DNA of 64,000 nt from Clavibacter michiganensis subsp. insidiosus (lineage in GTDB: Bacteria > Actinomycetota > Actinomycetes > Actinomycetales > Microbacteriaceae), in NCBI RefSeq assembly GCF_002240565.1, contig NZ_MZMO01000001.1, positions 2,728,001-2,792,000 of the forward strand, in the 5' to 3' direction. The translations under genes and the position numbers were made by a program. This document shows positions 34,194 to 53,474 of the stretch, piece after piece. The stretch's first letter is position 1. Each line of letters opens with the position of its first letter. The notes beneath the pieces are model-generated. The model saw nothing but the letters and a program-made list of their open reading frames with translations, had not been told where the DNA came from and ran no database searches.

Positions 34194-35183
<990 letters not shown>

Positions 35184-35314
35184 AAACCTCGATGCTGACG
35201 GATCCTCGCGGCCCGGATCCCGGGCGTCCAGGAGCCAGCGAGCGCGAACACTAACCAGGCGAGCACGTTTCCGCAATGGCGCGGGACGGGCTTGGCCTAG
35301 CGCTCACGCGCCAA

Positions 35315-35320
35315 TACGGT
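35315..35320 (+). promoter_or_regulatory. -10 hexamer TACGGT of cluster A (leaderless)
   Basis: 7 nt upstream of GTG 35328; the only promoter-like site seen for the six-gene operon. Confidence 0.55.
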
Positions 35321-35327
35321 GCTCCGC

Positions 35328-37903: not shown

Positions 37904-38903
37904 CGTCGCGCTCCTCGGCTACGGCGCGATGGGACGCGCCTACCACCGCCTGATCCGCACCCGGCCGGAGCTCGTGCCGCTCGTGGGCCGGCTGCACGTG
38001 GGGACGCGCGGGTCCGCGGCGCCGTGGACGCCGCTCCACGACCGCGACGTCGTCGGCTCCACGGACGACGCGCTCGCCCAGGGCCCGCCGTCCGCGGTGA
38101 TCATCGCGACCCCGCCCGACACCCACGAGGCGCTGGCCCACCGCGCGCTCGACGTCGGGGCGCACGTGCTCATCGAGAAGCCGGCGGCGCTCACCGCCGC
38201 CGGCGCCCGCGCGCTGAACCGGCACGCGGAGGAGGCGGGACGGAGCGTGCAGGTCGTCAGCCAGCTGCGCCACGTCGAGGCGTGGGGCCGGGCGCGCGAC
38301 CGGATCCGCGCGGGCGGGCTGGGATCGGTCCGCAGCGCGCTCGTGGACCTCCCGCTGTGGCGGTCGGACGCGTACTTCGCCGCGTCGCCCGCCCGCTCGG
38401 AGCACGAGCTGTGGAACCTCGCGTACCACGAGCTCGACCTCGCGGTCTGGTGCCTCGGGCCGGTCGACCGGATCACGGTCGCCCCGGCACCTGCGAGCGC
38501 CTCCCGGACGCGACCCGTCCCGCGGCTGGCTCCGTCCGCCGCGGTCCTCCACCACGCGTCCGGCTGCCTCACCACGCTGCGCTACACGACCCTCGCCTAC
38601 CCGGGGCGCGCGCCGCGCGTGTCGTTCGAGGGCACGGCCGGAGCGCTCGTGGTCGAGTCCGGGGCCGTCGTCGTCGATCTCGCGCCGCCGGCCGCCGACG
38701 TCCCCGACGCCGGCGTGTACGCGCGCCAGACCGCCGTGCCCGACGTCGCCGCGGACTGGCTCGCCCCGCACGTCGCGCAGCTGCGCGGCTTCCTCTCCGA
38801 CCCGGCCCGGACGTCCCCGCGACGGATCGACGAGACCTCGCTCCGCACCACCGACCTCATCCACCGAATCCAGCAGCGCCTTGAGAGAGAGGAACCGGTA
38901 TGA
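37890..38903 (+). CDS. Gfo/Idh/MocA-like oxidoreductase (cluster A, gene 3)
   Basis: 337 residues, overlapping gene 2 by 14 bp. LLGYGAMGRAYHRL binds NAD(P); VLIEKPAALTA (Glu96-Lys97-Pro98) is the EKP motif, and WNLAYHELDLAVWCLG (His-Glu-x-Asp) supplies the family histidine region. A beta-sheet C-terminal domain with FEGTAGALVVESGAV is standard for the family. Substrate unknown; context suggests a step next to gene 2. Confidence 0.82.
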   Translation: MPSPDVALLGYGAMGRAYHRLIRTRPELVPLVGRLHVGTRGSAAPWTPLHDRDVVGSTDDALAQGPPSAVIIATPPDTHEALAHRALDVGAHVLIEKPAALTAAGARALNRHAEEAGRSVQVVSQLRHVEAWGRARDRIRAGGLGSVRSALVDLPLWRSDAYFAASPARSEHELWNLAYHELDLAVWCLGPVDRITVAPAPASASRTRPVPRLAPSAAVLHHASGCLTTLRYTTLAYPGRAPRVSFEGTAGALVVESGAVVVDLAPPAADVPDAGVYARQTAVPDVAADWLAPHVAQLRGFLSDPARTSPRRIDETSLRTTDLIHRIQQRLEREEPV

Positions 38904-40162
38904 CGCACGTCATGTTCACCATCGTCGAGGACGAATTCGCCCGCGACTTCCTGCAGCACCCGCTCGATGCGCTGATCGCCGCATCCGTGCTCGCCCGCGA
39001 CGGACACGACGTCGCGATCTGGGACCAGCGCGTCGCGGACGCCCCGCCGACCGCGCCCGACCCGGCCTACGTCGTGGTGGTGACCGCCATCGCCGACCGG
39101 GCCCAGTGCTATCCGCTCGACCTCGGACCCGTCCGGCGGTCGGTGGAGGGGATCCGGGACCGGTGGCCGGGGGCGCGCGTCATCGCCGTCGGCCCGCACG
39201 GCACGCAGCTGCCGCAGCCCACGCTGGAGGACCTGGGCGTCGACTACGTCGCGCGCGGCGAGGCCGACGCGGCGGCCGTCGGAGCGGTGGGCCTGCTCGA
39301 GGAGGGCGGCATCCCCCTGTCCCGCGTGCTGCCCGCCTCGGGTCGCTTCGCCCCGCTGGAGCCCGAGCGCCTGCCCGTCCCCGACTACGACCTGATCGAC
39401 GCCGGCGCCTACACGGCGGAGACCTTCACGGACGGATCCCTGCACCGCAGCACCTGCGGCATCGTCCTGGGCGTGCGCGGCTGCACCTACGGCTGCTCCT
39501 TCTGCCATCTCCCCTTCGGCACGAGGATGCGCGCCGAGCCGGTCGAGACGACGCTGGCGACCATCGAGCAGCAGACCTCCCGCGGCGTGTCGGACATCTT
39601 CTTCCTCGACTACGTCTTCGGCCTGCACCGGTCGTTCTACACCGACCTGTGCCGGGAGCTGACGGGGCGCGGCGTGAGCTGGACCGGCCAGACCCGCACC
39701 GAGGTCGTGCTCCGCACCGACGTCGGCGACTGGGCGGAGGCCGGGTGCCGCGGCATGTGGCTGGGGGCCGAGTCGCCGGCGGTGAGCGAGACGGGGGTGG
39801 GCAAGCGGATCCCGGCCGAGAAGATCCAGCAGGCCATCGAGAAGCTCTCGCACGCGGGCATCACCCCCTTCGCGTTCGTGCTCCTGGGACTGCCCGACGA
39901 CCCCACCTGCCGGTCGGGCGAGATCGTCGACTGGGCGGCGACCATCCCCGGCTACTTCGGCCTGAACCAGCTGTTCCTGCGCCCGGGCACGCCGCTGTAC
40001 GACGAGATCGCGGCACGCTACTCGCCGGACGGCCCCCCTCGGGACTGGTACGGCGTCGACCGCATCACGCAGCGGTACCGGGAGGAGTACCCCGCGGACC
40101 TCGACGACCTGGAGCGCCGTCTCCAGGCTCTGCCGAACTACATCGGGAACGCGCTGTACTGA
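38900..40162 (+). CDS. Radical SAM enzyme with N-terminal cobalamin-binding-like domain (cluster A, gene 4)
   Basis: 420 residues. The 4Fe-4S motif CxxxCxxC is RGCTYGCSFC (Cys195, Cys199, Cys202). Residues 1-150 look like the Rossmann-type B12-binding domain of the BchE/HpnP/HpnJ group (LDALIAASVLARDGHDVAIW, VIAVGPHGTQLPQPTLED, GEADAAAV), but the DxHxxG cobalamin ligand motif is not seen. The order domain-CxxxCxxC with LFLRPGTPLYDE near the end is typical of this group. It could methylate, rearrange or cross-link an unactivated carbon. ATGA overlap with gene 3. Confidence 0.82.
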   Translation: MTHVMFTIVEDEFARDFLQHPLDALIAASVLARDGHDVAIWDQRVADAPPTAPDPAYVVVVTAIADRAQCYPLDLGPVRRSVEGIRDRWPGARVIAVGPHGTQLPQPTLEDLGVDYVARGEADAAAVGAVGLLEEGGIPLSRVLPASGRFAPLEPERLPVPDYDLIDAGAYTAETFTDGSLHRSTCGIVLGVRGCTYGCSFCHLPFGTRMRAEPVETTLATIEQQTSRGVSDIFFLDYVFGLHRSFYTDLCRELTGRGVSWTGQTRTEVVLRTDVGDWAEAGCRGMWLGAESPAVSETGVGKRIPAEKIQQAIEKLSHAGITPFAFVLLGLPDDPTCRSGEIVDWAATIPGYFGLNQLFLRPGTPLYDEIAARYSPDGPPRDWYGVDRITQRYREEYPADLDDLERRLQALPNYIGNALY

Positions 40163-41343
40163 TGCCCGGTCGCCTCGTCGTCACGGTGCCCCCGGCGTCC
40201 GCCCACTCCTACGACCACGTGGGGTACGCGGTCGACCTCGTGGTCGCGGGGGCGATCGCGTCCGCGCGCGCGGGCGGCGGCAACACGCGGGCGGGGGCGG
40301 TCGTCGTCGCGACGCGGGACGAGCACAGCATCCCGGCCGTCGCGGCCGGGCCGTCGCCCGACCTCTCGCACCTGGCGGGGATCGCGCGGCGCATCGCGGG
40401 ACCGCCCGTGGTCGTCGCGGGGACGGGCACGCCCGCCCTGCGGGACCTGGCCCGCGCGGCGTGGTCCGAGCTCGACGCCCGCGGCGCGCTCGAGAGCGGG
40501 ACCTACGAGCGGATGCAGTGCTCCGCGTGCAGGACGCTGGCCGACACGGCGGGATCGACCGCGAGCTGCCCGACCTGCGGCGGGACGGATCTCGTGCTCC
40601 GCTCGGAACGCAACTGGTTCCTGCGGACCGGCCCGTTCACGGAGGCGATCACGTCCTGGCGCGACGCCGTGGCGGTCCGCGGACCCGCGGCGGCGCTCGC
40701 CCGCGCCGCGCCCGCTCCGCCCGCCCGCCTCAGCGTCTCGCGCCCCGCCGAGCGCACCGGCGGAGCGGGGGTGCCCGTCCCGGGCGATGCCGAGCAGGTC
40801 GTCCACTCGGGCTTCGTCGCCGCGTGCAGCTACCTCCTCCCCCGGCCGGACGGCGACTGGGCGGCGTCCGGCGCGCGCGTCCAGGTCTGCGGGAAGGGCC
40901 TCGCCAACCTGCACCTGACCCTCGTCCCGCTGCTCTGCACCGCGCTCGGGCTGCCCGGCGCGGACGTCGTCCACGTGCACCACCACGTGACGGTCGACGG
41001 GCGGTCGCCGCAGTCCGCCGCGGCGGACGGCATCACCGCCTCCCGTCTCCTCGCGGAGCACGGGCCGGCCGCGCTCCGCTGGTGGATCCTGCGCCTCGGG
41101 CTGCCCCGGCGGGACGCGACGCTGCGCCTCCGCGACCTCGCCCTGCTCGCCGATCGCGAGCTGCCGCGCCTGGGGGCCGCGGGAGCGCCCGGCCGCCGCA
41201 GGGGGCTCGGCGCGCGGGACGCCCTCGACCTCGGCGGCCTCACGCGCGCCCTCGTCGCGCGGCCCCGGGACGCGGGCGGACAGGCAGCGACCGCGGATGC
41301 GCACGACGGCCTGGCGGGATTCGTCGGCTGGGTCATGGGATGA
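40162..41343 (+). CDS. Methionyl-tRNA-synthetase-like protein without a full anticodon domain (cluster A, gene 5)
   Basis: 393 residues. LVVTVPPASAHSYDHVGYA aligns with the MetRS opening, where HVGY stands for HIGH. A zinc knuckle follows (Cys120-x2-Cys123, Cys136-x2-Cys139) and then LRSERNWFLRTGPF, as in MetRS. VQVCGKGLANLHLTLVPLLC matches the MetRS FxGKDIxxFH region. The KMSKS loop is degenerate (DGRSPQS, 279-285). LRWWILRLGL marks the end of the catalytic part; only ~80 residues remain, so most of the helical anticodon domain is missing. Inference: amino-acid activation for biosynthesis, with or without tRNA, rather than translation. It could also be non-catalytic. Confidence 0.75.
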   Translation: MPGRLVVTVPPASAHSYDHVGYAVDLVVAGAIASARAGGGNTRAGAVVVATRDEHSIPAVAAGPSPDLSHLAGIARRIAGPPVVVAGTGTPALRDLARAAWSELDARGALESGTYERMQCSACRTLADTAGSTASCPTCGGTDLVLRSERNWFLRTGPFTEAITSWRDAVAVRGPAAALARAAPAPPARLSVSRPAERTGGAGVPVPGDAEQVVHSGFVAACSYLLPRPDGDWAASGARVQVCGKGLANLHLTLVPLLCTALGLPGADVVHVHHHVTVDGRSPQSAAADGITASRLLAEHGPAALRWWILRLGLPRRDATLRLRDLALLADRELPRLGAAGAPGRRRGLGARDALDLGGLTRALVARPRDAGGQAATADAHDGLAGFVGWVMG

Positions 41344-42512
41344 GCCCGGTCGCGACGCGGCTGTCCCGCCGCCTCCTGACCCTGCTGGTGCTCGTGCGCG
41401 CGGCGGGCTTCACGTCGATCGTCGCCGTGGTCTGGTTCCGCGAGGAGCGCACGACGGCCGAGATCGCGGTGATCCTCACGGCGTTCGGCGTCGGATCCGT
41501 CCTGCTCCCGGCCGCCGTCGGCCTGCTCGCCGGGGAGCGCCCGCTCCGACCCGTGCTCGTCGGCACGCTCGTGCTCAACGGGACCGCCCTGGTCCTCCTG
41601 CCGCTCACGGCGGGCGCGCCGCTCCCGCTTCCCTGCGCCGCCATGTGCGCGATCGGGGCGACGTCGAGCCTCGCGCGCTCGCTCATCGGCACGCTCCTCA
41701 CGGTCGCCGCCCCGGCGGACCGCCAGGCCCGCACCCAGTCGGTCATCTCCTGGACCGCGAACGTCGGCGGCGTCGTGGCGACCGGGATCGCCGGGGTCGT
41801 CGCCGCGTCCGGCGCGGACCTCGGGCCGCTCTTCGCCGTCGAGGGCGGGGTGCTGCTGGCGGCCGCGAGCCTCATCCCCCGCACGGAGGCGGTCGCCCGG
41901 ACCGCGCCCCCGGTCCCGCTCGGCGTCCGCGGCACGGTCGTGCGCCTGAGGGCGGCGCTCGTCGTCGCGACGGGGGCGACCGCGGTGATGCAGGGGCTCG
42001 GCATGCAGTTCGCGCTCACCACCGCGAGCCCCGACTCCTACGTGTACGCCGCGCTGACGAACGTGGTGCTCCTGATCGTCGCGCAGCCGCTGGTGCTGCG
42101 CGTCGTGCGCGACGGGTGGGCGTCCGCCTACCTCGTCGCGGGCTTCTGCGCGGCGGCGGCCACCGCGGTCGCGGTCGCCGCGACGGACAGCTGGCTGGTC
42201 TTCGGCGTCGGCTGGACCCTGTGCGAGCTGCTCCTCACGGCTGGCATGGTCCCCGTCGTCCTCGCCCGCACCCCCGCGTCGCTGCACGTGGCCGCGCTCG
42301 GCGTGGTCGGGTCGTCCTGGGGCTTGACGGCCGCCCTCATGCCGCCCGTGATCGGGACGGCCGTCGCCGCCGTGGGCGCGACGGGCAGCTGGGGCGTGCT
42401 CGTCGCCATCGGGGCGATCGGGGCGATCGCCTCCGGACTCGCGATGGGGCTCCGGGGCGTCCGCCCGACGGCGGGGTCCCGGGACGGCCGGGGGGAGCGG
42501 GTGCTCGACTGA
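41340..42512 (+). CDS. MFS transporter, probable exporter (cluster A, gene 6)
   Basis: 390 residues with about eleven or twelve TM segments and short loops; SVISWTANVGGVVATGIAG (about 138-156) is an MFS helix 5 region. No soluble domains. Last gene of the operon, ATGA-coupled to the MetRS-like gene; as the only transporter in the set it is the likely exporter and self-protection factor for the product. Stop only 6 bp from the convergent nitrilase stop, so there is no room for a separate terminator. Confidence 0.82.
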   Translation: MSPVATRLSRRLLTLLVLVRAAGFTSIVAVVWFREERTTAEIAVILTAFGVGSVLLPAAVGLLAGERPLRPVLVGTLVLNGTALVLLPLTAGAPLPLPCAAMCAIGATSSLARSLIGTLLTVAAPADRQARTQSVISWTANVGGVVATGIAGVVAASGADLGPLFAVEGGVLLAAASLIPRTEAVARTAPPVPLGVRGTVVRLRAALVVATGATAVMQGLGMQFALTTASPDSYVYAALTNVVLLIVAQPLVLRVVRDGWASAYLVAGFCAAAATAVAVAATDSWLVFGVGWTLCELLLTAGMVPVVLARTPASLHVAALGVVGSSWGLTAALMPPVIGTAVAAVGATGSWGVLVAIGAIGAIASGLAMGLRGVRPTAGSRDGRGERVLD

Positions 42513-42518
42513 CCCAGC

Positions 42519-43358
42519 TCAGGCGCCCCACTCGAGCCCCCGACGCCGGTTCGCGAGCACGGGCAGCGTGCCGCGCGCGGCCTCGACGGCCGACGGGTCG
42601 ATGTCGACGACGAGCAGGTCCTCCTCGCCGCCGAGGCGGTGCAGCACCTCGCCCAGCGGCGAGACCACCGCGCTGCGGCCGATGCCCGTGGGCGCGCCGC
42701 TCGCCGGGTCGTGGCCGCGGGATCCGGCCGGCAGCGTCGCGGGGTCGCCCTGGCCGACCGCGACCACGAAGGTCGTGGAGTCGAGCGCGCGGGCGCGGAG
42801 CAGGAGGTCCCACTGGTCGGCCTTGCCGGGGCCGGCGCCCCAGCTCGCGCAGACGATGCTGACGGCGGCGCCCTGGTCGGCGCCCGCGAGGAAGAGCGCG
42901 GGGAAGCGCACGTCGTAGCAGGTGGCGAGCGACGCGCGCGTGCCGCCGACCTCGATCACGGCGACGCTCTCGCCCGGGTCGACGGCGTCGGACTCGCGGA
43001 ACCCGAACGCGTCGAAGAGGTGGATCTTGTCGTACGAGCCGGCGCCCGCGGCCTCCTGGCAGGCCGGCCGGGCGACGAGGAGCGTGTTGCGCACGCGGCC
43101 GTCGGCGCCGGGCGTGAACATGCCCGCGACGATCACGACGCCGAGCCGGTCCGCCACCGCCCGCACGCCGGAGGCCCACGGCCCGTCGAGCGGCTCCGCG
43201 ATCTCGGGCAGCGGGTTCCCGAACGCGCGCTGCGCCGCCTCCGGGAACACCACGAGCTCGGCGCCCTGCCGCGCGGCGTCCTCCGCGAACGCGGTGATCC
43301 GTGCCAGGTTGTCCGCGGGATCCGGGGAGCTGATGATCTGGGCTAGCGCTACTCGCAT
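42519..43358 (-). CDS. Carbon-nitrogen hydrolase (nitrilase superfamily amidase)
   Basis: 279 residues. The Glu-Lys-Cys triad is clear: Glu40 (LVVFPEAAQ), Lys111 (YDKIHLFDAFG) and Cys147 (LATCYDVRFP). The protein fits omega-amidase/NIT-type or carbamoylase-like branches; the substrate is an amide or carbamyl compound. ATG 43358 has GAGGAGG upstream, which rules out the longer frame. Divergent from a GntR gene across a TGTATACA operator. Convergent with cluster A. Confidence 0.9.
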   Translation of the reverse strand: MRVALAQIISSPDPADNLARITAFAEDAARQGAELVVFPEAAQRAFGNPLPEIAEPLDGPWASGVRAVADRLGVVIVAGMFTPGADGRVRNTLLVARPACQEAAGAGSYDKIHLFDAFGFRESDAVDPGESVAVIEVGGTRASLATCYDVRFPALFLAGADQGAAVSIVCASWGAGPGKADQWDLLLRARALDSTTFVVAVGQGDPATLPAGSRGHDPASGAPTGIGRSAVVSPLGEVLHRLGGEEDLLVVDIDPSAVEAARGTLPVLANRRRGLEWGA

Positions 43359-43386: not shown

Positions 43387-44061
43387 ATGCGAGAACGGGC
43401 GGGCGATCCAGGCACCTCGGCGAGCGCCCTCTCCGGCCGCGAGAGGGCCTACGAGTTCCTCCACGCGCACGTCCTCACCGACCCCGACCAGCAGGGGGCG
43501 TTCCTCAACGAGCAGGAGCTCGCCGAGCACATCGGCGTCTCGCGCACGCCCGTCCGGGAGGCACTGCTGCTGCTCGCCGCCGACGACCTGGTGGAGATGA
43601 TCCCGAAGCGCGGCGCGCGGATCCCCGTCATCACCGGCCGCCAGATCGCCGAGCTGATGGAGCTGCGCGGCGTCCTCGAGCGGCACGCCGCCACGAGCGC
43701 CGTGGAGCACGACCGCACGCCGCTCGACGCGATGCGCGAGGTGCTCGAGCAGCAGCGCGCCATGGTCGCGACGCCGCCGCGCGAGAGCGGCCGGGAGTTC
43801 ATCGAGCACGACCGCCGCTTCCATCAGCTCCTCGTCGACGCGGCGGGCAGCGAGCTGATGAGCCGCACCTACGCGAAGCTCCGCGCCCGGCAGATCCTCG
43901 TCGGCGTCGAGGCGCTCTACCGCGCGACCGACCGGCAGGACCGGGTCTGCGAGGAGCACGCCGGCATCGTCGACGCGCTGGCCGCGGGCGATGCCGAGGC
44001 CGCGCGCGGGGCGATCGACCGGCACCTCGCCGTCACGCTCGACGTGCTGCTGCGCGCCTGA
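43387..44061 (+). CDS. GntR-family regulator, FCD subgroup
   Basis: 224 residues. N-terminal wHTH with QELAEHIGVSRTPVREALLL (about 40-59), followed by the all-helical FCD ligand-binding domain with HDRRFHQLLVDAAGSELM (metal/ligand His near 140) and HAGIVDALAAGDAEAA. FCD regulators sense organic acids and release TNGTNNNACNA-like or TGTATACA-type palindromes. It probably controls nitrilase and itself, and by operator match also the MHS transporter/DUF2848 pair 9.5 kb away. Confidence 0.88.
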   Translation: MRERAGDPGTSASALSGRERAYEFLHAHVLTDPDQQGAFLNEQELAEHIGVSRTPVREALLLLAADDLVEMIPKRGARIPVITGRQIAELMELRGVLERHAATSAVEHDRTPLDAMREVLEQQRAMVATPPRESGREFIEHDRRFHQLLVDAAGSELMSRTYAKLRARQILVGVEALYRATDRQDRVCEEHAGIVDALAAGDAEAARGAIDRHLAVTLDVLLRA

Positions 44062-44543
44062 GACCGGGCCGCGCCCACCAAGGCCGGCAGCGCGGCGAGA
44101 TGGGTCTCGTGGATCATGCAGGTGCCTGCCTTCGCGAGGTCCACGACCGCGCACCTCGGAGCCGCCCGCCGCCGACGGGCGACGCGCGTGGTCTCCGTCT
44201 CTCGATCATGCCGCGACGACGGTGTCCGTCGGTCGAGCGTGGGCGCGCAGGAGCTCGTGTCCTCGAGTTCGAACGACGATCGACGATCGACGATCGACGA
44301 TGTCGGAGGGACCGGGTCCGAGGGTCCGGCCCGCCGGATCGCCGCCGGCCGGAACATGACTCGCGCTGGCGCGTCCGCGTAGGCATGGCTCGGAAGGGCA
44401 TCAGAGTGGACGTCCTCGACGCGCACTCCCACCGCGCCTTCCGCCGGGGGGCGCCTCGGTGAGCACGACTCAGATCGTGGGAGCCGGCTGACTCGAGCAG
44501 CACGCCCAGCGGATTCGGCGGGGCGAGTCACTGAGCCCGTCGC
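44062..44543. other. Gene-free junction region with 7-bp tandem repeat
   Basis: 482 bp between GntR and cluster B. Contains the (CGACGAT)4 repeat and no convincing gene. On the minus strand around 44085-44160 a short stretch reads like protein (VVDLAKAGTCMIHETHLAAL) without a start or continuing domain, so it may be a gene remnant at the edge of the acquired cluster B. Confidence 0.4.
44274..44301. repeat. Tandem repeat (CGACGAT)x4
   Basis: Four perfect 7-bp copies, intergenic. Suitable as a length-variable locus. Confidence 0.85.
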
Positions 44544-45878
44544 TCAGCGGATCGCGGTCGACGTGGAGCGGCGATTGGGAGCGACCGGGAGTCCGAGGTG
44601 ACCGCGCAAGGTGTCCGCCTCGTAGTCCCGCCTGAACACGCCGTGGTCCTGCAGGATGGGGATCACCTCCGTGACGATGCGGTGGAAGTTATGGGGTCGA
44701 TCTGCTCCGATGATGAATCCGTCGCAATCGCCGGACGACCACCATTCTCGGAGGAGGTCGGCGACCCTCCCCGGGGAGCCGACGAACTCGCTCTGTTGCG
44801 CCTGTCGCTGACGCTCGACGGCTTGCCGGAGCGTCAGGCCCAGGGAAGCGGCATCTCGTGTCACCCGCTCGGCCCGTGAGCGGTACGCATGGGTGGAGGC
44901 GCGCACCGCGTCGAGGGGGAATGGCTCATCCAACCCATCCGGGTCGAACTCGTACCAGCCGAACCAACGACGCATCTCGTCGAACGACTCCTCGAACGGG
45001 TGATCGTGCTCCTGGTATTCGTGCGCGAGTTCGCGCGCCTCGGCATCCGTATCCCCGACCACGATCCTCACGCTCGGGAAGATGAGCACGTCCCTCGGGG
45101 AACGCCCGCGTGCCGCCGCGCGTCGACGGACGTCATCGCTGAATCTCTTCAGCTCCGGACGACGGGACGCGTTCGTGAAGATCGCATCTGCCGCTGCCGC
45201 GCCCAGGTCGCGTCCGGGTGCCGAGTCGCCCGCTTGGAACAGTGCGGGGCGCCCTTGCCTGCTGCGTTGGATGTTGAGCGGTCCCGCCACGTTGAAATGC
45301 TTCCCGTGGTGATCGAGGGCGTGCTGTTTGCCAGGATCGACGAACACCCCGCTCTCCTTCTCGTACAGGAAGGCGTCGTCCTCATAGGAATCCCAGAGCC
45401 CTGTCACCACCTCGACATGCTCGTGCGCCATGGCATAGCGCTCTTCCGGGGTGTAGTGAGAGGAGCGATTAAAGTTCCTCGCTGTCGCGGGGTCCCCTGT
45501 CGTCACGATGTTCCATCCCGCCCGGCCATCGCTGAGGAGGTCGACGGAAGCGATCCGACGAGCGAGGTCGAACGGGGAGCTGTAGCTCGTCGACCCGGTC
45601 GCGACCAGACCGATCCGACGAGTGTGCATCGCCAGTGCCGAGAGGAGCGTGAACGGCTCGAACCGGTTGAGCGAATGCGGGGAGCTCCTCGGGCCGACGT
45701 GCAGGCTGTCAGCCAGGAACATGAAGTCGAAGGCCGCCGCCTCGCTCATCCCGACCAGCTTCTTGTACCACTCGAGGTTGACGCTGGCGTCGGCGGGAAT
45801 GCTCGGGTCGCGCCACAACCGGTGCTGCCCGTACCCGCCCGAGCCCAGGGGGACAACTCCCAAGTGCATCTTCCTCAC
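44544..45878 (-). CDS. Luciferase-like FMN monooxygenase, NtaA/SnaA/DszA type (cluster B, gene 7)
   Basis: 444 residues. Family landmarks: MHLGVVPLGSGGYG at the start, FDFMFLADSLHVG, RIGLVATGSTSYSSPFDLAR, the FMN segment SDGRAGWNIVTTGDPATARN (about 137-156) and RYAMAHEHVEVVTGLWDS. These two-component enzymes oxidise with FMNH2 from a separate reductase; no reductase gene is adjacent. GTG 45878 overlaps the GT14 stop (GTGA); an ATG three codons on is the alternative. As the last gene of cluster B it could do N- or C-oxidation of the product. Confidence 0.85.
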   Translation of the reverse strand: MRKMHLGVVPLGSGGYGQHRLWRDPSIPADASVNLEWYKKLVGMSEAAAFDFMFLADSLHVGPRSSPHSLNRFEPFTLLSALAMHTRRIGLVATGSTSYSSPFDLARRIASVDLLSDGRAGWNIVTTGDPATARNFNRSSHYTPEERYAMAHEHVEVVTGLWDSYEDDAFLYEKESGVFVDPGKQHALDHHGKHFNVAGPLNIQRSRQGRPALFQAGDSAPGRDLGAAAADAIFTNASRRPELKRFSDDVRRRAAARGRSPRDVLIFPSVRIVVGDTDAEARELAHEYQEHDHPFEESFDEMRRWFGWYEFDPDGLDEPFPLDAVRASTHAYRSRAERVTRDAASLGLTLRQAVERQRQAQQSEFVGSPGRVADLLREWWSSGDCDGFIIGADRPHNFHRIVTEVIPILQDHGVFRRDYEADTLRGHLGLPVAPNRRSTSTAIR

Positions 45879-46780
45879 TGATCGCTCTCCTCTCCCATGA
45901 GCCCGGCATGGATGTCCCGCATCAGCACCGCCGTCAGCGAATCGCTCTCGGGCGAACGGAGCTTCCTGCAGAAGTAGCTGCCGGATGCCTTGATGTCGTC
46001 GTGATCAGACAGGTCGAGATATCGGCCTGAGCTGAGGAAGTGGAAGTTCGCGTAGCTGCGAGTCCGCCGCTCACCGCGGGGCACGATGGCGCCCTCCGGC
46101 GTGTGCGCGACCCAGGGCGAGTCGTATAGCAGCGTGTGCCAGACCAGCTCGTCCGGTCCGTAGGTGTTGCGGAACATCCGTCGAACACCCTGGCTTGATG
46201 CCCTGTCGAGGAGGTCAGCGACGCACTCCCGGGTGAGCGCGAACCACAGACTGCCCCCGACCGGTTCCATTCCGCGCCAGTGGGAAGCTCGTCGTCGCGG
46301 TGCCAGGATCGCGATGGTCTTGAGGAGGCGCCATCTCCAGGCCGTGATGCCCCCCACATCCGGCCGGCAGGGGATCGCATCGAACAGCCAGCGGCGTGTG
46401 ATCCTCGCCAGCGATTCAGGTCGAGAGTCGAGCATCCCACCTCCATTGCAGTACTGACGAGAGGGGACGGATGCCAGATGGGACTCGAACTCCGCCAGGG
46501 GCCGAGCGGGGAAGCACTCGCCGGATAGCATGACGATGTACTCACCGTCGCCAGCCAGCTCGAGGGCCACTCCCATCGACGCGTTGATGGCGTCCAAGGT
46601 CGAGTATCCCGCCCAGTTGACCGCCGTGCGGTCGGGAACCACGTGGATGTCGTCGCCCGAGTACGCACCCGCGTCTTCGCGGGCGTCGACATGGAGCACA
46701 ACGGTGCTCGGCGCGAGCACCCTGGCGAGTCGGCGGACCGCGGTCGGATCACGGTGGGCGAGCACGACGTAGACGGTCAT
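45875..46780 (-). CDS. Core-2/I-branching beta-1,6-GlcNAc-transferase family (GT14) glycosyltransferase (cluster B, gene 6)
   Basis: 301 residues. VYVVLAHRDPTAVRRLARVL, VVLHVDAREDAG, VNWAGYSTLDAINASM and YIVMLSGECFPARPL follow the GT14 pattern seen in bacterial homologues; the catalytic Glu is likely in YGPDELVWHTLL. Soluble GT-A-like enzyme, donor probably a UDP-sugar. ATGA overlap with the broken exporter gene upstream. It may add a second sugar to the product. Confidence 0.82.
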   Translation of the reverse strand: MTVYVVLAHRDPTAVRRLARVLAPSTVVLHVDAREDAGAYSGDDIHVVPDRTAVNWAGYSTLDAINASMGVALELAGDGEYIVMLSGECFPARPLAEFESHLASVPSRQYCNGGGMLDSRPESLARITRRWLFDAIPCRPDVGGITAWRWRLLKTIAILAPRRRASHWRGMEPVGGSLWFALTRECVADLLDRASSQGVRRMFRNTYGPDELVWHTLLYDSPWVAHTPEGAIVPRGERRTRSYANFHFLSSGRYLDLSDHDDIKASGSYFCRKLRSPESDSLTAVLMRDIHAGLMGEESDQ

Positions 46781-47961
46781 CCGGCGCTCACCTCCAGAGG
46801 CGCCTGTCTGATCAACGGGCTGGACGCCACTGCGCCTACGGCGACGAGCGCACCGAGGATCGAGATGACCACCGCGGGGTGCGCGACGGCGAGAGCAGCG
46901 AGCGTCGGGGCGAGGGCGTACGGCGTGAAGGACGCGAGCTGGAAGGTGGACATGTAGCTGCTCGCTTCCCCCGACGGCGCGATCCGCAGAGCCCACGCGG
47001 TGCCCGTGGGACGGGCGACCATCTCCCCCAGCGAGACAAGGCACCCGCCCAGGATCAGCAGCATCACCCAAGAGTCATGAGCGAGGACGAGGGTCAGCAG
47101 ATATGCGACGAGCGCGAGCAGGGAAGCGCCACTCGACACGGCGGTCTGTCACCAACGCGAGCGTCCGTGGACCGCATTCACGATGGGAACCTGCAATAGG
47201 AAGATCATCGCGTATCGCACCGCGACGACCAGCGCAGCGACCCCCGCAGGCAATCCCAGGTGCTCGACGATCAGGAGCGGGAGCAGGGTGGTCGGGGCGA
47301 GCCAGACGAAGGAGAGGCAGGCTTGGGAGATCAGCAAGGTCATGAATCGCGTGTCCGCCAACGTGCGCCACACCTGCAGTCTCCGCGATGGCCGCTCTCC
47401 TCCGTCTCGACCGCTCGGGACGGCGAGCGTCAGCAGGATCGAAGCCGCGGTCGTGACCATGTTCACGACGAACAGCAGCGTATACGCCCCCACCCCGAGC
47501 TGATACGCGGCGACTGCCGCGAGGGCTGCGCCGGTGCCCATCGTGGCGGACTTGATGGCCGTGAACTTGCCGAATACGACGGCGATGTCGCTGTCGGGGA
47601 ATCGCTGCGAGGCGAGGATCGGCCAGGCGGCGGAGTGCACCCTGTCCCCGACCGTGAGCACGAACGAAGCGGCGAGGATGCTCCAAAAGCCGACCGTCAG
47701 CCCACACAGGATCAGCCCAGCGGTGGACACCGCACTCGCCACGGCTACCGCATTCCGGGCGCCGATCGCGAGGACGACCCGTTCTGCCAGTGGGAGCGTG
47801 CTGAAGGACAGGATCGTCCCGACTGTCACAGCCAGCCCGACCTCCGAGACATCGACGCCTCGGACAGCGACGAAAAAGATCAGCGAGCTCGCAGCGAAGG
47901 CGCCGGTTCCGAAAGTGTCGACGATCAGACCGAGGATGAGCGCCTTGTCGTCACGCAGCAT
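46777..47961 (-). pseudogene. MFS exporter with one in-frame TGA (cluster B, gene 5)
   Basis: 394-codon MFS frame from ATG 47961 (ribosome-binding site GGGAGGGAG) to 46777. Codons up to VHGRSRW are open, then TGA at 47149-47151, then the same frame continues QTAVSSGASLLALVAYLL to the end with normal TM segments. So the gene is complete except for a single stop after residue 270, between helices of the C-terminal half. The context UGA-C is the one most prone to readthrough, so partial full-length product is possible. Otherwise the pathway has lost its exporter. The stop overlaps the next gene (ATGA), so coupling downstream would need readthrough or internal starts. Confidence 0.8.
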
Positions 47962-48065
47962 CGCACTCCCTCCCCGCCGGTGTAGGCATCGGCAGGCACA
48001 GACCGATGGGCCGCACACGCGTCCGACCGGCTCCTCATTGTCATTGGACCCGAGCTCCGCGCGGG

Positions 48066-48614
48066 TCACTCGTACGCGAGCGCAGCGACCTCGCTGAAGG
48101 GCGTGGCGGACGTGATCACGCGTAGCGGTTCCGGGAGATCCATCCAGGCGAACAGCTGCGTCTCGATGCGCTGGAGCTCGTCCACGCCCCCGGAGGCGGA
48201 CAGCATCGTCAGGATCTTCTGTTCGACCGATCCAGAAGGTGCGCGGTTCGCCCTCCCTTCGACTCGGCGCCAGCATTCCGCGGTCTCCTCCTTGAGCAAC
48301 ACGCGATGCACGTGTCCGCCACCCGCCACCACAGCCTCCTCGAAAGGGCGTGCCTCTTCCGGGACGAAGAACAGCTGAGGGAAGATGACGTTCCCACCTG
48401 CCGCGATCTGCTCGCGGAGCACCGCGAGCGCGAGCGGTTGGACTTCGGCACCTGCACTCAGGAAGTCCACGTGAAAGGTCCCCAGCAGACCGCGGATCAC
48501 ATCGACGTCGAGGTTCAACCACCCCCGCCTGGACTCGATGAAGCTCCGCGCGAACGTGGACTTCCCGGATCCGGGTAGACCGTTGAGGAAGATGCAGTGG
48601 GGGGCGTCAGTCAT
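48066..48614 (-). CDS. P-loop kinase, AAA_33/shikimate-kinase-like (cluster B, gene 4)
   Basis: 182 residues. Walker A GLPGSGKST (12-20); LNLDVDVIRGLLG gives the Asp of the substrate region; VIFPQLFFVPEEARPFE and HRVLLKEETAECWRRVEGRAN resemble the lid of zeta-toxin/chloramphenicol-phosphotransferase-like kinases. Soluble. In this context it could phosphorylate the nucleoside or protect the producer by phosphorylating the product. A 66-bp gap follows ThyX-like, and a 104-bp gap precedes the exporter gene. Confidence 0.75.
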   Translation of the reverse strand: MTDAPHCIFLNGLPGSGKSTFARSFIESRRGWLNLDVDVIRGLLGTFHVDFLSAGAEVQPLALAVLREQIAAGGNVIFPQLFFVPEEARPFEEAVVAGGGHVHRVLLKEETAECWRRVEGRANRAPSGSVEQKILTMLSASGGVDELQRIETQLFAWMDLPEPLRVITSATPFSEVAALAYE

Positions 48615-48680
48615 CGTGGTCGGATCCCCTGTTCGGGCGACGGCCCATGCGGCAAGTCGATCGCGGCGGCCTGGTCCCGG

Positions 48681-49577
48681 TCATGCGAAGGTCCTCGCGC
48701 CCTTGGACGCCTCGACCTCTGTCCGCAACGAACGCCACGCGAGCAGGTTCCCGACGCGGGGCAGATGCTCGAGCGGCAGGTCGTGCTGCCTCCCATTTCG
48801 ATCCGTGAAACGCAATTCGCCCTTGTTCCGGTTCTCGGGCCACGGCGTGGCGACGTGCTCGAGCGGCGACCAGTGCGGCGGGTCCGCGGACACCAGCTTG
48901 TCGAAGAGCTTGAGGTCCGCTTCGGGGTCGGCATTGCCATCGTGCGTCAGGTACGACGTCCGGGCGCAGCGGGCTGCGCTGATGCGGGCGAGCAGATCAC
49001 CTCGGGCACCGTCCTCCTCGACGTCGCGGTCGGTGACATAGGGCAGGTGCCACCCGCCTGCAGGCAACTGTCGAGGGACGGACCCCGAGCGCGCATCCGA
49101 CATCGCCTTCGCGAGGGCCCGGACCTCGGGTTGGGCCAGCTCAGAATCTCGCTGGAGGAAGAAGTTGTCCCAGGCGGTGGACGTCACGACGCTGGTATGC
49201 CACATGAAAGGCTCGAGCACACGATTGGTGACGGACTTGTGCAGGCCGGCGGCTTGCAGATCCGCAGCGCGGTCCATGGCGAATCGCCCGATGTCCCGCC
49301 AGATGCCCTTCACCGTCTCCGCGTCCTCCAAGGCGTCCCCGCCTTGCATGCCACGTCGTTCCGCAGGCCATGCGAGCGGCTCCGCCTGTCCCACGCTCAT
49401 GCTGGAGAGCTGTCGGGACACCGGTACTGCCCTGCTGCTCGACGAGTTCCGAGAGAAGACCCTGTGCGAGTTGAACTGAGGCAGCATGAACCGGTGGAAG
49501 CGCACTTCCAACGTCGTCAACCTCACGCCTGACTCGTAGGTGCTGTCGGCGATCACCGTCGCGCTGGGCTGGTTCAC
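48681..49577 (-). CDS. ThyX-like flavin-dependent C5-methylase (cluster B, gene 3)
   Basis: 298 residues. The ThyX signature RHRx7S is present as SHR-x7-S: Ser37-His38-Arg39 ... Ser47 in NSHRVFSRNSSSSRAV; FHRFMLPQFNSHR matches the preceding strand, and ARCARTSYLTHDG is the late conserved stretch of the longer ThyX-like proteins. Known: ThyX makes dTMP from dUMP with FAD and methylene-tetrahydrofolate, and pathway-specific relatives such as PolB of polyoxin methylate UMP at C5. In a cluster with kinase, glycosyltransferases and exporter, a role in making a 5-methylpyrimidine nucleoside is the simplest inference. GTGA-coupled to the GT4 gene. Confidence 0.8.
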   Translation of the reverse strand: MNQPSATVIADSTYESGVRLTTLEVRFHRFMLPQFNSHRVFSRNSSSSRAVPVSRQLSSMSVGQAEPLAWPAERRGMQGGDALEDAETVKGIWRDIGRFAMDRAADLQAAGLHKSVTNRVLEPFMWHTSVVTSTAWDNFFLQRDSELAQPEVRALAKAMSDARSGSVPRQLPAGGWHLPYVTDRDVEEDGARGDLLARISAARCARTSYLTHDGNADPEADLKLFDKLVSADPPHWSPLEHVATPWPENRNKGELRFTDRNGRQHDLPLEHLPRVGNLLAWRSLRTEVEASKGARTFA

Positions 49578-50908
49578 TCGGCGTCCGCCTTGTCGTCCTG
49601 TGACGTGCGCCCGTAGGCACCTGCCTCGATCGACACGAGCAGCTCGGAGAAGTTCGTCGCGGCATCGAACTTGGTGAGCACCTGCTCCCTCATCGCGGCT
49701 GACATCCTCCTGCGGTCTGACACGGGCGCGTCCATCGCGCGCTCGATGGCCCCGGTGAACGACTCGACATCGGTCACGTCGAACATGAAGCCCGTCTCGC
49801 CGTCTGCTAGCTGATCCTGGTACCCACCGTGCCTCGGTGCGACGATGACGGGCGCTGCGTCCCGTGACCAGCACGCGACTTCCTGCGGTATCTGCCCCAT
49901 CGGCTCGCCTTCGGCAGAGAGCAGGAACGCGACGGTCTCAGGGAGGCCGGCGAGAGCCCTCGGGAGCTCCCTCTCGAACCGGGTGATGTAGTCGTACGAC
50001 TCGATCTCCCGGCGCAGCTGCACAGCGTGGGGAGCCGCACCGTCGAGCTCATGGCTCCCCGGAATGGCTGCGATGAGCACCAGATGGCATGGCCTTCTGA
50101 CTCGGGAGACCGCTTCGATGGCGAAGGGGATCCTCTTCATGGGATGGTCTCGCCCGAAGTGCACGACAAGGGGAAGGGTCCGGTCAATTCCGAACCCCTC
50201 GACGACCGACGCGCACTCCGCGGCCGTGTACGGCGCCATCTCAGCGGCGCCCGAGGAGACCCCGTGGCCCAGGCGCATCCAGGCGTCCGACCGCGCTCCG
50301 TAGTCCCGCTCGATCTTCCCGTCGAAGAAGGGCGTCAATGTCGTTATGAACGTAGAAGCGTCTTCGTTGGCACGGCGCACGTACTCGCGTTCCAGGGCTT
50401 CCCTCCCAGGGATCCAACCCTGGCCGTCGACGACCGCGGACGAATGGAAGGCCAGAGCGAAGAGGATCTTGTCTAGCTTCCATCCGGGGAGGGTGTTCTC
50501 GCAGCACTCCCGCACGAGCGCATACGGGACGTCCACGCCGATGAACAGGACCTGGTCGTATTCTTCGGCGAGCTGGGAGAGGAGATCCGCCGCCGAGGAA
50601 CTCAACTCCGCCCACTTCGCGTACGCCCACAGGGGGTTCCGCGCATCATGCGGAAGGCGATGGATGCGGATCCCCGACGCATTCGCCCTCGCGAGGGAAC
50701 TCTCCAACATGTCGTCGTCGACCCGGTAGTCGGAGCTCGGGATCGTCCAGTCGTGCACAGCGACGTGAAGGTCCCAGCGTCCACAATCGGCGACCTGCAA
50801 CTTGGCCTCGACACAGGCCCAGGCATCCATGAGGATCCGCGTCTGGACTCCCGAGCCGTGGTACATGTTCGCTACACCATCCGTGTTCGCATACAGCAAC
50901 GCCCGCAT
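49574..50908 (-). CDS. Family 4 glycosyltransferase (cluster B, gene 2)
   Basis: 444 residues, GT-B fold. N-terminal acceptor domain starts RALLYANTDGVANMYHGSGV (glycine-rich loop), donor domain has VVHFGRDHPMKRIPFAIEAV (about 255-274) and the EX7E-like segment EPMGQIPQEVACWS with HGGYQDQLADGETGFMF following. Soluble. ATG 50908 overlaps the radical SAM stop as ATGA, which fixes the start against a longer frame. It is the first of two glycosyltransferases in the cluster. Confidence 0.85.
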   Translation of the reverse strand: MRALLYANTDGVANMYHGSGVQTRILMDAWACVEAKLQVADCGRWDLHVAVHDWTIPSSDYRVDDDMLESSLARANASGIRIHRLPHDARNPLWAYAKWAELSSSAADLLSQLAEEYDQVLFIGVDVPYALVRECCENTLPGWKLDKILFALAFHSSAVVDGQGWIPGREALEREYVRRANEDASTFITTLTPFFDGKIERDYGARSDAWMRLGHGVSSGAAEMAPYTAAECASVVEGFGIDRTLPLVVHFGRDHPMKRIPFAIEAVSRVRRPCHLVLIAAIPGSHELDGAAPHAVQLRREIESYDYITRFERELPRALAGLPETVAFLLSAEGEPMGQIPQEVACWSRDAAPVIVAPRHGGYQDQLADGETGFMFDVTDVESFTGAIERAMDAPVSDRRRMSAAMREQVLTKFDAATNFSELLVSIEAGAYGRTSQDDKADAE

Positions 50909-51762
50909 CAGAGCTTCTGCAGCCACTTCTTGTACGCGACCACCTCGGGAGCGAGCGGGTCCTGCCTCCAGAGGGAGTCGATGGAGTCGTGCCGCACATC
51001 GCCGAGGATCTCGTAGGTGTCTCCCCTCGGCAGGAGGATCTTCGCCTCCGGGGAGACGATGAAGCAGCTGGCTGTGTCGCTGTCGGAGGCAGCGACCTTC
51101 ACGTCACCGGCGATCTCCATGGCCTCCGCCGTGACCGACTGGAAGGTTGCGGTGGGCAGCGCATGGCGGTCGACCCCACGGTTGTACTCACCTCGAGAGC
51201 TGTACTGGTAGAGGCGCCAGACGCTGGGCCGGATCACGTCGTTCACGACACGGGCCATCTCGGCGATGTGGTGCTGGTTGACGCTGCTGACGACGGTGGC
51301 GATCTTCAGCTGGACGCCCGATTCCTGCACCAGGGACACCGCCCTCATGGCCTTCGCGAGAGTGGCTCGCTTGCCACGCATGTCCCGGTGGACGTCGGGA
51401 TCGCACGCATCCATGGATATGCCGATCACGTCGAAGTGGTCGACGAGCCTCCTTGCGGGGTCTCGGCTCAATGACGATTCCAGGAGCTCGCCGTTGGTGT
51501 TCAGGATCGTCTTCTTGCCCTGGCCGCGGAATGCACGCGAGTAGTGCCAGACGTCATCGCCGACTACCAGGGGTTCACCGCCGCAGAAGGTCACAGCGGG
51601 GGTCTGGGACGCGAGAATGGACTCTGCGATGATCGCGCGAAGGGAATTGTCATCCTTCGTGGGCACTGGACCCCAGCAATAGTCGCAGGTCAGGTTGCAC
51701 CGTGACGTCATCCACCAATCTACGGAGGGCGGCGTGATGGGAAGCGGCGGATTCTCAGTCAT
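50908..51762 (-). CDS. Radical SAM enzyme (cluster B, gene 1)
   Basis: 284 residues. SRCNLTCDYCWG gives CxxxCxxC (Cys22, Cys26, Cys29); VTFCGGEPLV is the SAM-binding GGE motif; ILNTNGELLESSL and VIGISMDACDPDVHRDMRG complete the MoaA/anSME-type barrel. The end ASCFIVSPEAKILLPRG...LGDVRHDSIDSLW has the look of a SPASM/twitch tail but lacks the second-cluster cysteines. AAGGA stands before ATG 51762. First gene of the operon, so the promoter should be just upstream; base composition is lower in GC than the flanks. Product chemistry unknown. Confidence 0.85.
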   Translation of the reverse strand: MTENPPLPITPPSVDWWMTSRCNLTCDYCWGPVPTKDDNSLRAIIAESILASQTPAVTFCGGEPLVVGDDVWHYSRAFRGQGKKTILNTNGELLESSLSRDPARRLVDHFDVIGISMDACDPDVHRDMRGKRATLAKAMRAVSLVQESGVQLKIATVVSSVNQHHIAEMARVVNDVIRPSVWRLYQYSSRGEYNRGVDRHALPTATFQSVTAEAMEIAGDVKVAASDSDTASCFIVSPEAKILLPRGDTYEILGDVRHDSIDSLWRQDPLAPEVVAYKKWLQKL

Positions 51763-52070
51763 GTCACATCCTTGTGCTTGGGACTCGATTAGCGCGACGC
51801 TACCAACCGTGGGGCGGCCCGCACGGGAGTTGCACACAGGAGCGTGACGCCTCCCGTGTTGCGGGCGCATGGCCCGAGGAAGACGGTGGGACACGTCGGC
51901 CGCACGCACGGCGAGGAGCGGCCCGTCGTCCTCGCCATCGCGCAAGAGCGGATCGCCAAGCTGGGTCCGACGGATCGGCGCGTCCCCGCCGATGACGAGG
52001 TCGCGTCCATCCCCCACGGCGCCGACGGCCAGGGACCGTCGACGCCGCCGGGTGGGCCGGATCCTCCGGG
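51763..52070. other. Gap between cluster B and the MHS transporter gene
   Basis: 308 bp. The first ~80 bp must contain the cluster B promoter; TAATCG near 51785 is a weak candidate. The rest (51844-52070) has an open frame on the plus strand reading LAIAQERIAKLGPTDRRV, which could be a remnant of a gene, but no start or known domain is visible. Confidence 0.3.
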
Positions 52071-53474
52071 TCAGCGCGGGGAGAGCGGCGCCGCCAGGCC
52101 CTCGGCGCCCGTGCGCACGTACTCCTCGTCCTCCTCCACGTTCGAGTCGCGGCCCATCGCGAGGCCCACGAGCGTGAGCACGACCGCGGCGGTGAGGTAC
52201 AGCGCGATGCCGACCCAGCTGCCGGTCTCCTCGTAGATGATCGTGAACATCAGCGGCGCGATGGCCCCGCCGATCACGCCGGCGATCGTGTACGCGAGCG
52301 AGGCGCCCGTGTAGCGCAGCCGCGGCGAGAACTGCTCGATGATGTACGCCGCCTGCGGCCCGTACATGAAGGAGTAGAAGAAGAGGCCGAGCACGATGCC
52401 CACGCCGAGCACGAAGGTCGACGACCCGTCGGTGATCGCGAAGAACACGTACGCCCACACCGCCGCGCCCACCGCGGCGGCCGCGTACAGCGCCCGGCGG
52501 TTGATGCGGTCGCTCACGGCGCCCGCGAACGGGATCGTGAACAGCTGCACGGCGGATCCGACGAGCACGGCCACGAGCACCTGGCTGCGATCGAAGCCGA
52601 GCGTGTTCACGCCGTAGGTGAGCGTGAAGACGGTGAAGAGCGCGTAGAGCACGTCGGGTCCGACGCGGCTGAGGATCGCGGCCACGAGCGGGCGCGCCTG
52701 CGTGCGGAAGATCTCCGAGATGGGCGCGCTCGGGCGGTCGCCGCGCTCCTGCAGCGCGCGGAACACGGGCGTGTCCTCGAGCTTCAGGCGGATCCAGAGG
52801 CCGAACGCCACGAGCAGCGCGGAGAGCAGGAAGGCCACGCGCCAGCCCCAGTCGAGGAAGTCCTCCTCGGTGAGCAGCACGGTGAGCAGCGCGAGGGCGC
52901 CGTTGGCGAGCAGGTTGCCGGCGGGCGGGCCGACCTGCGCGGCCGATGACCAGAAGCCCCTCTTCCGCGGATCGCCGAACTCGCTGGAGAGCAGCACCGC
53001 GCCGCCCCACTCGCCGCCGACGCCCACGCCCTGCGCGAAGCGGAGGAGCACGAGGATGATCGGCGCCGCGAGGCCGATGGTCGCGTAGCCCGGCAGCACG
53101 CCGATGAGGAACGTCGCGATGCCGATGAGCAGCAGCGTGAGCACGAGGACGGGCTTCCGGCCGATCTTGTCGCCGAGCCGCCCGAACACGAACCCGCCGA
53201 CGGGGCGCGACACGTAGCCGACCGCGTAGGTGGAGAACGCGAGGATCGTCGCCGTGTAGGGGTCCGACGCGGGGAAGAACACGATGGGGAACACGACGGC
53301 GCTGGCCGCCGAGTACACGGCGAAGTCATACCACTCGAGCGAGGTGCCGGTGAGGCTCGCGGTGAACGCCTTGACGAGCTCGCGGCGGGTGGGCTTCTCG
53401 GTCGCGGCGGGTGCCGCGTGCGCGCCGGATGCGGGCGCGGTCGCCGCCGGGGAGGCGGTGGGGTCGTCGACCAT
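52071..53474 (-). CDS. MHS-family MFS transporter
   Basis: 467 residues from ATG 53474. SLTGTSLEWYDFAVYSAASA is the MHS signature opening; GGFVFGRLGDKIGRKPVLVL (about 100-119) is the MFS loop 2-3 motif, and RFAQGVGVGGEWGGAVLLSSE the typical helix 5 motif. The family imports metabolites such as shikimate, alpha-ketoglutarate or proline with protons. Divergent from the DUF2848 gene with a CTGTATACAG operator between, so GntR control is likely. Probably brings in the compound handled by nitrilase and DUF2848. Confidence 0.9.
   Translation of the reverse strand: MVDDPTASPAATAPASGAHAAPAATEKPTRRELVKAFTASLTGTSLEWYDFAVYSAASAVVFPIVFFPASDPYTATILAFSTYAVGYVSRPVGGFVFGRLGDKIGRKPVLVLTLLLIGIATFLIGVLPGYATIGLAAPIILVLLRFAQGVGVGGEWGGAVLLSSEFGDPRKRGFWSSAAQVGPPAGNLLANGALALLTVLLTEEDFLDWGWRVAFLLSALLVAFGLWIRLKLEDTPVFRALQERGDRPSAPISEIFRTQARPLVAAILSRVGPDVLYALFTVFTLTYGVNTLGFDRSQVLVAVLVGSAVQLFTIPFAGAVSDRINRRALYAAAAVGAAVWAYVFFAITDGSSTFVLGVGIVLGLFFYSFMYGPQAAYIIEQFSPRLRYTGASLAYTIAGVIGGAIAPLMFTIIYEETGSWVGIALYLTAAVVLTLVGLAMGRDSNVEEDEEYVRTGAEGLAAPLSPR

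What the first reader, a model, noticed from the sequence alone, without database searches (positions are those of the whole stretch)
44544..51762. Cluster B: acquired seven-gene pathway for a glycosylated, C5-methylated nucleoside-like product
Gene order radical SAM, GT4, ThyX-like, P-loop kinase, MFS, GT14, luciferase-like monooxygenase, on one strand, several with ATGA/GTGA overlaps. GC is visibly lower than in the flanks. ThyX relatives in secondary metabolism methylate UMP (PolB, polyoxin). With a kinase, two glycosyltransferases and an exporter, a nucleoside or sugar-nucleoside product is the simplest reading. I recognise no described cluster of this composition.
Basis: partly seen in the sequence, partly recalled or inferred. 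Interest (0 to 1): 0.88.

Follow-up and report, generated by a model that had tools for sequence, protein, structure and literature searches.

The report
Acquired viperin-like nucleoside pathway island
A likely Clavibacter bacterium and a distant soil actinomycete share the same rare six-gene block, which is predicted to build a sugar-decorated, methylated nucleoside with the help of a relative of the antiviral enzyme viperin, a combination for which our searches found no description.

The parts
50908..51762 (-). Viperin-like radical SAM enzyme, 284 aa; CX3CX2C at residues 22-29; Cys233 where viperins have the conserved Tyr
49574..50908 (-). GT4 glycosyltransferase, 444 aa, EX7E motif at residue 335; starts inside the radical SAM stop (TGATG)
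   Evidence: Pfam Glycos_transf_1; motif; 3 proteins, its own included, at E<=0.001 among 7,996 word-sharing candidates; relatives of 25-30% exist
48681..49577 (-). ThyX-like protein, 298 aa, phage-type class with segments in changed order; GTGA overlap with GT4
48066..48614 (-). P-loop kinase, 182 aa, Walker A GLPGSGKST at residue 12
   Evidence: Pfam AAA_33 1.6e-10, also just over the Zeta_toxin cut-off; motif; substrate unknown
46777..47961 (-). MFS transporter gene, interrupted; not in the Lentzea block
   Evidence: Pfam MFS_1 on the N-terminal part, weaker and under cut-off on the C-terminal part; absent from L004
47149..47151 (-). In-frame TGA inside the MFS gene
   Evidence: sequence; stop or sequencing error not distinguished
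45875..46780 (-). GT14 (Core-2/I-branching) glycosyltransferase, 301 aa; ATGA overlap with the MFS stop
   Evidence: Pfam Branch 3.9e-10; PDB beta-1,6-GlcNAc transferase 3otk E 5e-4
44544..45878 (-). Luciferase-like FMN monooxygenase of the NtaA/DmoA subfamily, 444 aa; GTGA overlap with GT14
   Evidence: NCBIfam TIGR03860 465.5 bits, cut-off 279.7; closest solved YtnJ/MoxC; in one frame with a HAD phosphatase in Lentzea
44062..44175 (.). Left edge of the acquired block
   Evidence: matches to genus mates end at 44061-44094 in 13 and at 44175 in four others
52016..52084 (.). Right edge of the acquired block
   Evidence: matches resume at 52080-52095 in 13 genus mates and at 52016 in four others

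Best explanation
This is an acquired, likely biosynthetic operon whose six-gene core is predicted to make a glycosylated, C5-methylated nucleoside by way of phosphorylated intermediates, with a viperin-like radical SAM enzyme that would modify the nucleotide's sugar and a ThyX-like enzyme that would methylate its pyrimidine. Shown: the block is absent from 17 of 17 genus mates and recurs with the same six genes in the same order in Lentzea; both host genomes have another thymidylate synthase; the monooxygenase runs on into a HAD phosphatase in Lentzea. Predicted by modelling: the viperin fold of the radical SAM protein. Inferred: (1) ThyX-like, with FAD, NADPH and methylene-tetrahydrofolate, methylates a uridine-type nucleotide other than plain dUMP; (2) the P-loop kinase phosphorylates the nucleoside or its sugar; (3) the radical SAM enzyme takes the 4'-hydrogen of the bound nucleotide, and Cys233, in place of viperin's tyrosine, ends the radical, giving a 3',4'-didehydro or a 4'-epimeric sugar; (4) GT4 and GT14 add two sugars; (5) the monooxygenase makes a late oxidation; (6) a phosphatase and an exporter (ABC in Lentzea, MFS in the window, the latter interrupted) release the product.
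Against: No product is known. The radical SAM protein fails the viperin model's cut-off (86.6 against 180) and has lost the conserved tyrosine, so nucleotide dehydration is not implied by family; one viperin entry, 6b4c (21.0), ranks no higher than SuiB. The order of steps is guessed; the substrates of kinase, GT4 and GT14 are not identified by any search, and the kinase also passes the Zeta_toxin cut-off. A GT14 and an NtaA-type monooxygenase are not typical nucleoside-cluster genes (recalled). The substrate-motif changes in ThyX-like would also fit a drug-resistant target copy. The MFS stop means that the window's own pathway may lack its exporter. The rotated ThyX-like protein scored no better with Pfam or NCBIfam than the native one. 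Of the three lineages only two have been seen with all six genes.
Confidence: 0.5

Rival explanations
1. ThyX-like is a self-resistance copy of the drug target: the operon makes a glycosylated nucleotide analogue that inhibits thymidylate synthase, and the divergent ThyX keeps the producer alive.
For: The class is the only thymidylate synthase found in G528; the window genome has only a canonical ThyX besides it and no ThyA match; cluster copies differ in the substrate motif, as resistant copies often do (recalled).
Against: Lentzea carries the same ThyX-like gene although it also has ThyA and another ThyX, so a ThyX-directed drug would threaten it less. The gene is translationally joined to GT4 in both hosts, which fits either role.
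Confidence: 0.2
2. The product is not a nucleoside: a glycolipid, glycosylated peptide or sugar-based metabolite built with enzymes recruited from nucleotide families.
For: Two glycosyltransferases and an NtaA/DmoA-type monooxygenase; next-best folds to the radical SAM model include the peptide-modifying enzymes SuiB (21.5) and SkfB (19.4).
Confidence: 0.2
3. It is an antiphage system: a prokaryotic viperin with a nucleotide kinase and accessory genes making chain-terminating nucleotides inside the cell.
For: PADLOC pVip hit, 94.6 bits; E. coli plasmid NZ_CP045714 has a related radical SAM gene beside a deoxynucleoside kinase and NudI.
Against: Below the NCBIfam viperin cut-off, Tyr to Cys; glycosyltransferases, monooxygenase-phosphatase fusion and exporters are not expected in an intracellular defence (inference); the kinase matches AAA_33, not dNK or thymidylate kinase.
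Confidence: 0.07

Closest known systems
Viperin / SAND (radical-SAM nucleotide dehydratase), prokaryotic pVip included
   Same: Predicted fold over residues 8-284, CX3CX2C, conserved Lys153 and Trp182
   Different: Below family cut-off; conserved Tyr is Cys233; lies in a glycosyltransferase operon
PolB, UMP/dUMP C5-methylase of polyoxin biosynthesis (PMC5003785)
   Different: Another ThyX class with altered segment order; Glu94 and Tyr99 equivalents are Ser45 and Ala50 (by motif register)
Phage-type ThyX (PHROG 85), also the only thymidylate synthase found in G528, likely a Nocardioides
   Same: PHROG 85 E 6e-54; up to 41% to Escherichia phages, 56-57% to G528, same motifs
   Different: Cluster copies have Gln34, Ser37 and Ser46, and their genomes have a second synthase
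BlsE, cytosylglucuronate decarboxylase of blasticidin S
   Different: Clearly less similar than most viperin entries
NtaA/DmoA-type monooxygenases (YtnJ/MoxC)
   Same: Over the subfamily cut-off, 465.5 against 279.7; YtnJ nearest solved
   Different: Substrate unknown; Lentzea copy runs on into a HAD phosphatase

Membership tests
Viperin / SAND | CX3CX2C iron-sulfur motif and radical SAM domain | tested here: met
   the three Cys in all 120 sequences aligned
Viperin / SAND | Viperin fold over the whole chain | tested here: met
Viperin / SAND | Score over the NCBIfam equivalog cut-off NF038283 | tested here: not met
   86.6 bits against 180
Viperin / SAND | Conserved active-site tyrosine (proton/electron donor, PMC9642334) | tested here: not met
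   Cys233 aligns with the Tyr of mouse, Nematostella and an archaeal protein; Cys in all 120. Numbering Tyr302 is recalled
Viperin / SAND | Converts an NTP to its ddh analogue | not testable with these tools
   needs enzyme assay
ThyX / Thy1 | Pfam gathering score PF02511 | tested here: met
   36.6 bits against 24.8
ThyX / Thy1 | NCBIfam equivalog cut-off TIGR02170 | tested here: not met
   43.7 against 87.9
ThyX / Thy1 | Segment order of canonical ThyX (AARxS...SPxEH block before the RHR motif) | tested here: not met
   the block follows the HR motif here; 6, 0 and 1 of 5000 shuffles reach the scores of the C-terminal, N-terminal and middle parts; scores are low, rotation gave no gain, and residues after 170 were barely tested by structure
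PolB-type UMP methylase | Glu94 and Tyr99 of the substrate recognition peptide | tested here: not met
   Ser45 and Ala50, in at least 118 of 120; register, no superposition
Nucleoside antibiotic gene cluster | Co-inherited pathway genes | tested here: met
   six genes in order in the window and in Lentzea
Nucleoside antibiotic gene cluster | Export gene in the cluster | tested here: inconclusive
   MFS in the window is interrupted; ABC ATPase and ABC-2 permease lie upstream on the other strand in Lentzea
Nucleoside antibiotic gene cluster | A nucleoside product | not testable with these tools
   no metabolite data
Prokaryotic viperin antiphage system | pVip with a nucleotide kinase, without export or glycosylation genes (recalled) | tested here: not met
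   kinase matches AAA_33; glycosyltransferases and a transporter gene in the operon

The most novel reading that the evidence does not exclude
Viperin chemistry turned from cell-internal defence into a secreted small molecule: a viperin-fold enzyme that quenches its C4' radical with a cysteine makes a new class of exported, doubly glycosylated 5-methyl-nucleosides with a 4'-inverted or 3',4'-didehydro sugar, methylated by a rearranged phage-type ThyX with altered substrate.
Probability: 0.25. Interest if true: 0.85.

Novelty: new variant of a known kind. Interest (0 to 1): 0.62.

Why it matters
If right, it links viperin chemistry, described in the papers seen here mainly as antiviral defence, to secreted natural products, and gives a compact, co-inherited set of enzymes, also present in a named Lentzea strain, for finding a new nucleoside scaffold. 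The ThyX-like class, apparently sufficient as the only thymidylate synthase of one actinobacterial genome, differs in segment order and substrate motif from the solved ThyX enzymes it was compared with.

Tried and rejected
Rotating the ThyX-like protein to restore canonical order did not raise Pfam or NCBIfam scores, so the change of segment order rests on low segment scores; the structural alignment suggests a moved inner segment (first strand kept) rather than a simple circular permutation, and it barely tests residues after 170. The GT4 has no match in the phage records and the kinase none, so a phage DNA-hypermodification reading was dropped. The one viral contig hit to the radical SAM alignment covers only residues 18-119 at 28%. 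By tblastn at E<=0.01 the Nocardia plasmid with a 25% GT4 relative has no other cluster gene, nor has the Embleya locus; the stretch fetched around the G528 gene has only ThyX-like. The Lentzea ThyX outside the block is too divergent from the window's canonical ThyX to serve as a yardstick of species distance. Promoter and terminator scans gave nothing above shuffles. No tRNA, and no Rfam match at gathering score, in the window. A TSCPD family search of the own genome gave nothing. A first version of the segment test picked a wrong ORF and was redone. Protein searches 12, 13 and 91 score only candidates sharing short words: the 30% GT4 relative was not among the hits, so '3 proteins' counts close copies only. 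Literature: searches of the held library showed no cluster of this make-up; subscription papers are mostly not held.

Full report
WHAT IS THERE. Four of the six borders overlap (TGATG, GTGA, ATGA, GTGA). The MFS frame is broken by TGA at 47149-47151; whether this is a real stop or a sequencing error cannot be told here.

IT WAS ACQUIRED. The radical SAM gene is in 1 of 18 genomes of the genus, the window's own, and the ThyX-like gene, at E<=1e-30, in 1 of 398 genomes sampled from the family, again its own. All 17 genus mates have the right-flank transporter gene. In 13 of the 17 the 4.4-kb stretch fetched also reached the left flank: the two flanks are 66-116 bp apart in 11 and 482-492 bp apart in 2. 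In the other 4 the same place holds 1.6-4.9 kb of other DNA: an endoribonuclease L-PSP (RidA) family gene, tested by Pfam in two of the four, and in the 4.9-kb version tested also ABC transporter and solute-binding protein genes (the rest read by eye). The insert is 66.1% GC, the chromosome sample 73.0%; the seven genes fall in the lowest 4-10% of 205 background genes by codon adaptation. The first 8 kb of a 75-kb contig of the same genome match 48 plasmid records, 45 of them Clavibacter, so the host is likely a Clavibacter.

IT IS A UNIT, BUT OF SIX GENES. Lentzea xinjiangensis contig NZ_FOFR01000039 (L004) carries radical SAM, GT4, ThyX-like, kinase, GT14 and monooxygenase in that order at 64-81% identity, without the MFS. 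It was one of two loci that encode a relative in the scan of 84,980 species genomes; the other has only a 47% radical SAM relative. dN is 0.14-0.29 and dS 1.0-1.6, which fits purifying selection on all six. Upstream in Lentzea, on the other strand, are an ABC ATPase and ABC-2 permease and an FAD/GMC oxidoreductase. The Lentzea monooxygenase runs on in one frame into a HAD phosphatase (730 aa). This fusion points to dephosphorylation as a step of the pathway. In word-based searches of 5.8 billion proteins the GT4 gave 3 proteins at E<=0.001 among 7,996 scored candidates, its own included; the radical SAM and ThyX-like genes each gave 3 close ones, own included, before identity falls to 48% and 60%. 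These searches miss distant relatives: a 30% GT4 relative exists. The radical SAM gene, at E<=1e-30, is in 1 of 390 genomes of Lentzea's family, Lentzea itself.

THE ThyX-LIKE PROTEIN. It passes Pfam's cut-off but not NCBIfam's. It belongs to a class found in 1,020 of 50,697 phage records (best 41%). There it sits beside a DHFR and near a DapA gene. That genome, listed as 100% complete, gave no ThyA and no other ThyX match, so the class probably makes dTMP. The window genome has a canonical ThyX besides it and no ThyA match. Lentzea has ThyA and another ThyX besides. The class has the canonical N-terminal block behind the HR motif; support is modest, and a rotated protein gained nothing. Compared with 117 other members, the three cluster copies share five unusual residues, three of them (34, 37, 46) within residues 34-50; there 117, 117 and 116 of 117 others agree (binomial 0.0017, with the stretch chosen afterwards). 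By motif register these stand at PolB positions 79, 82 and 95, and PolB's Phe79 and Arg82 contact the substrate phosphate (PMC5003785, passages). The register is mine, not a superposition. The cluster enzyme thus seems tuned to another substrate, or made insensitive to an inhibitor.

OTHER ENZYMES. The kinase is AAA_33 with an intact Walker A, and also passes the Zeta_toxin cut-off, so its substrate is open. The GT4 has an EX7E motif. Its nearest relative in the plasmid collection, 30% in Embleya, lies near QueC, PTPS, GTP cyclohydrolase I and nucleoside deoxyribosyltransferase genes, a weak hint of nucleoside context. The GT14 is Branch family. The monooxygenase is a clear NtaA/DmoA member.

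READING. A nucleoside-type pathway through phosphorylated intermediates explains the set best: C5-methylation, phosphorylation, radical change of the sugar, two glycosylations, an oxidation, dephosphorylation, export. Only the gene content, the fusion and the conservation are shown, and the folds are predicted; every chemical step is inferred. The strongest rival is that ThyX-like protects the producer; the ThyA of Lentzea weakens it without excluding it.

LITERATURE. Searches for viperin with nucleoside clusters (only the BlsE paper, seen as a listing), ThyX with nucleoside antibiotics (three papers, PolB paper read in passages), nucleoside antibiotic with radical SAM, thymidylate synthase, glycosyltransferase and gene cluster (none), viperin with natural products (nothing relevant by the listing) and ThyX self-resistance (none) found no such cluster in the held library.

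Noticed in passing
window 35183-42531: A second stretch, with a radical SAM/B12-binding-like gene at 38900-40162 and a methionyl-tRNA-synthetase-like gene within 40150-41343 and an MFS (read by eye), is missing at that place from 7 of the 8 genus mates looked at; in the eighth (G008) the region aligns through at 83%.
   Followed up: partly
window 47149-47151: In-frame TGA splits the MFS exporter gene of the cluster.
   Followed up: partly
L067 10000-10893 (G528, likely Nocardioides): The rearranged phage-type ThyX appears to be the only thymidylate synthase of this genome and lies beside a DHFR gene.
   Followed up: yes
L073 2501-4498 (E. coli plasmid NZ_CP045714): Viperin-like radical SAM gene followed by a deoxynucleoside kinase and NudI, with WRFYQ close to the window's WRLYQ and, by alignment, Asn at the tyrosine position.
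   Followed up: partly
L005 1715-3191 (Nocardiopsis MAG): A 47% relative of the radical SAM protein is followed by a PfkB-type kinase fragment.
   Followed up: partly
protein P0001 residue 43: The stored near-identical copy of the ThyX-like protein differs from the window's at one residue, Trp for Arg, within the substrate motif stretch.
   Followed up: no
L076 4583-14841 (Embleya sp. NBC_00888): A region without listed genes, with QueC, PTPS, a QueE-like radical SAM ORF (by eye), GTP cyclohydrolase I, a GT4 and nucleoside deoxyribosyltransferase, looks like a deazaguanine metabolite cluster.
   Followed up: partly
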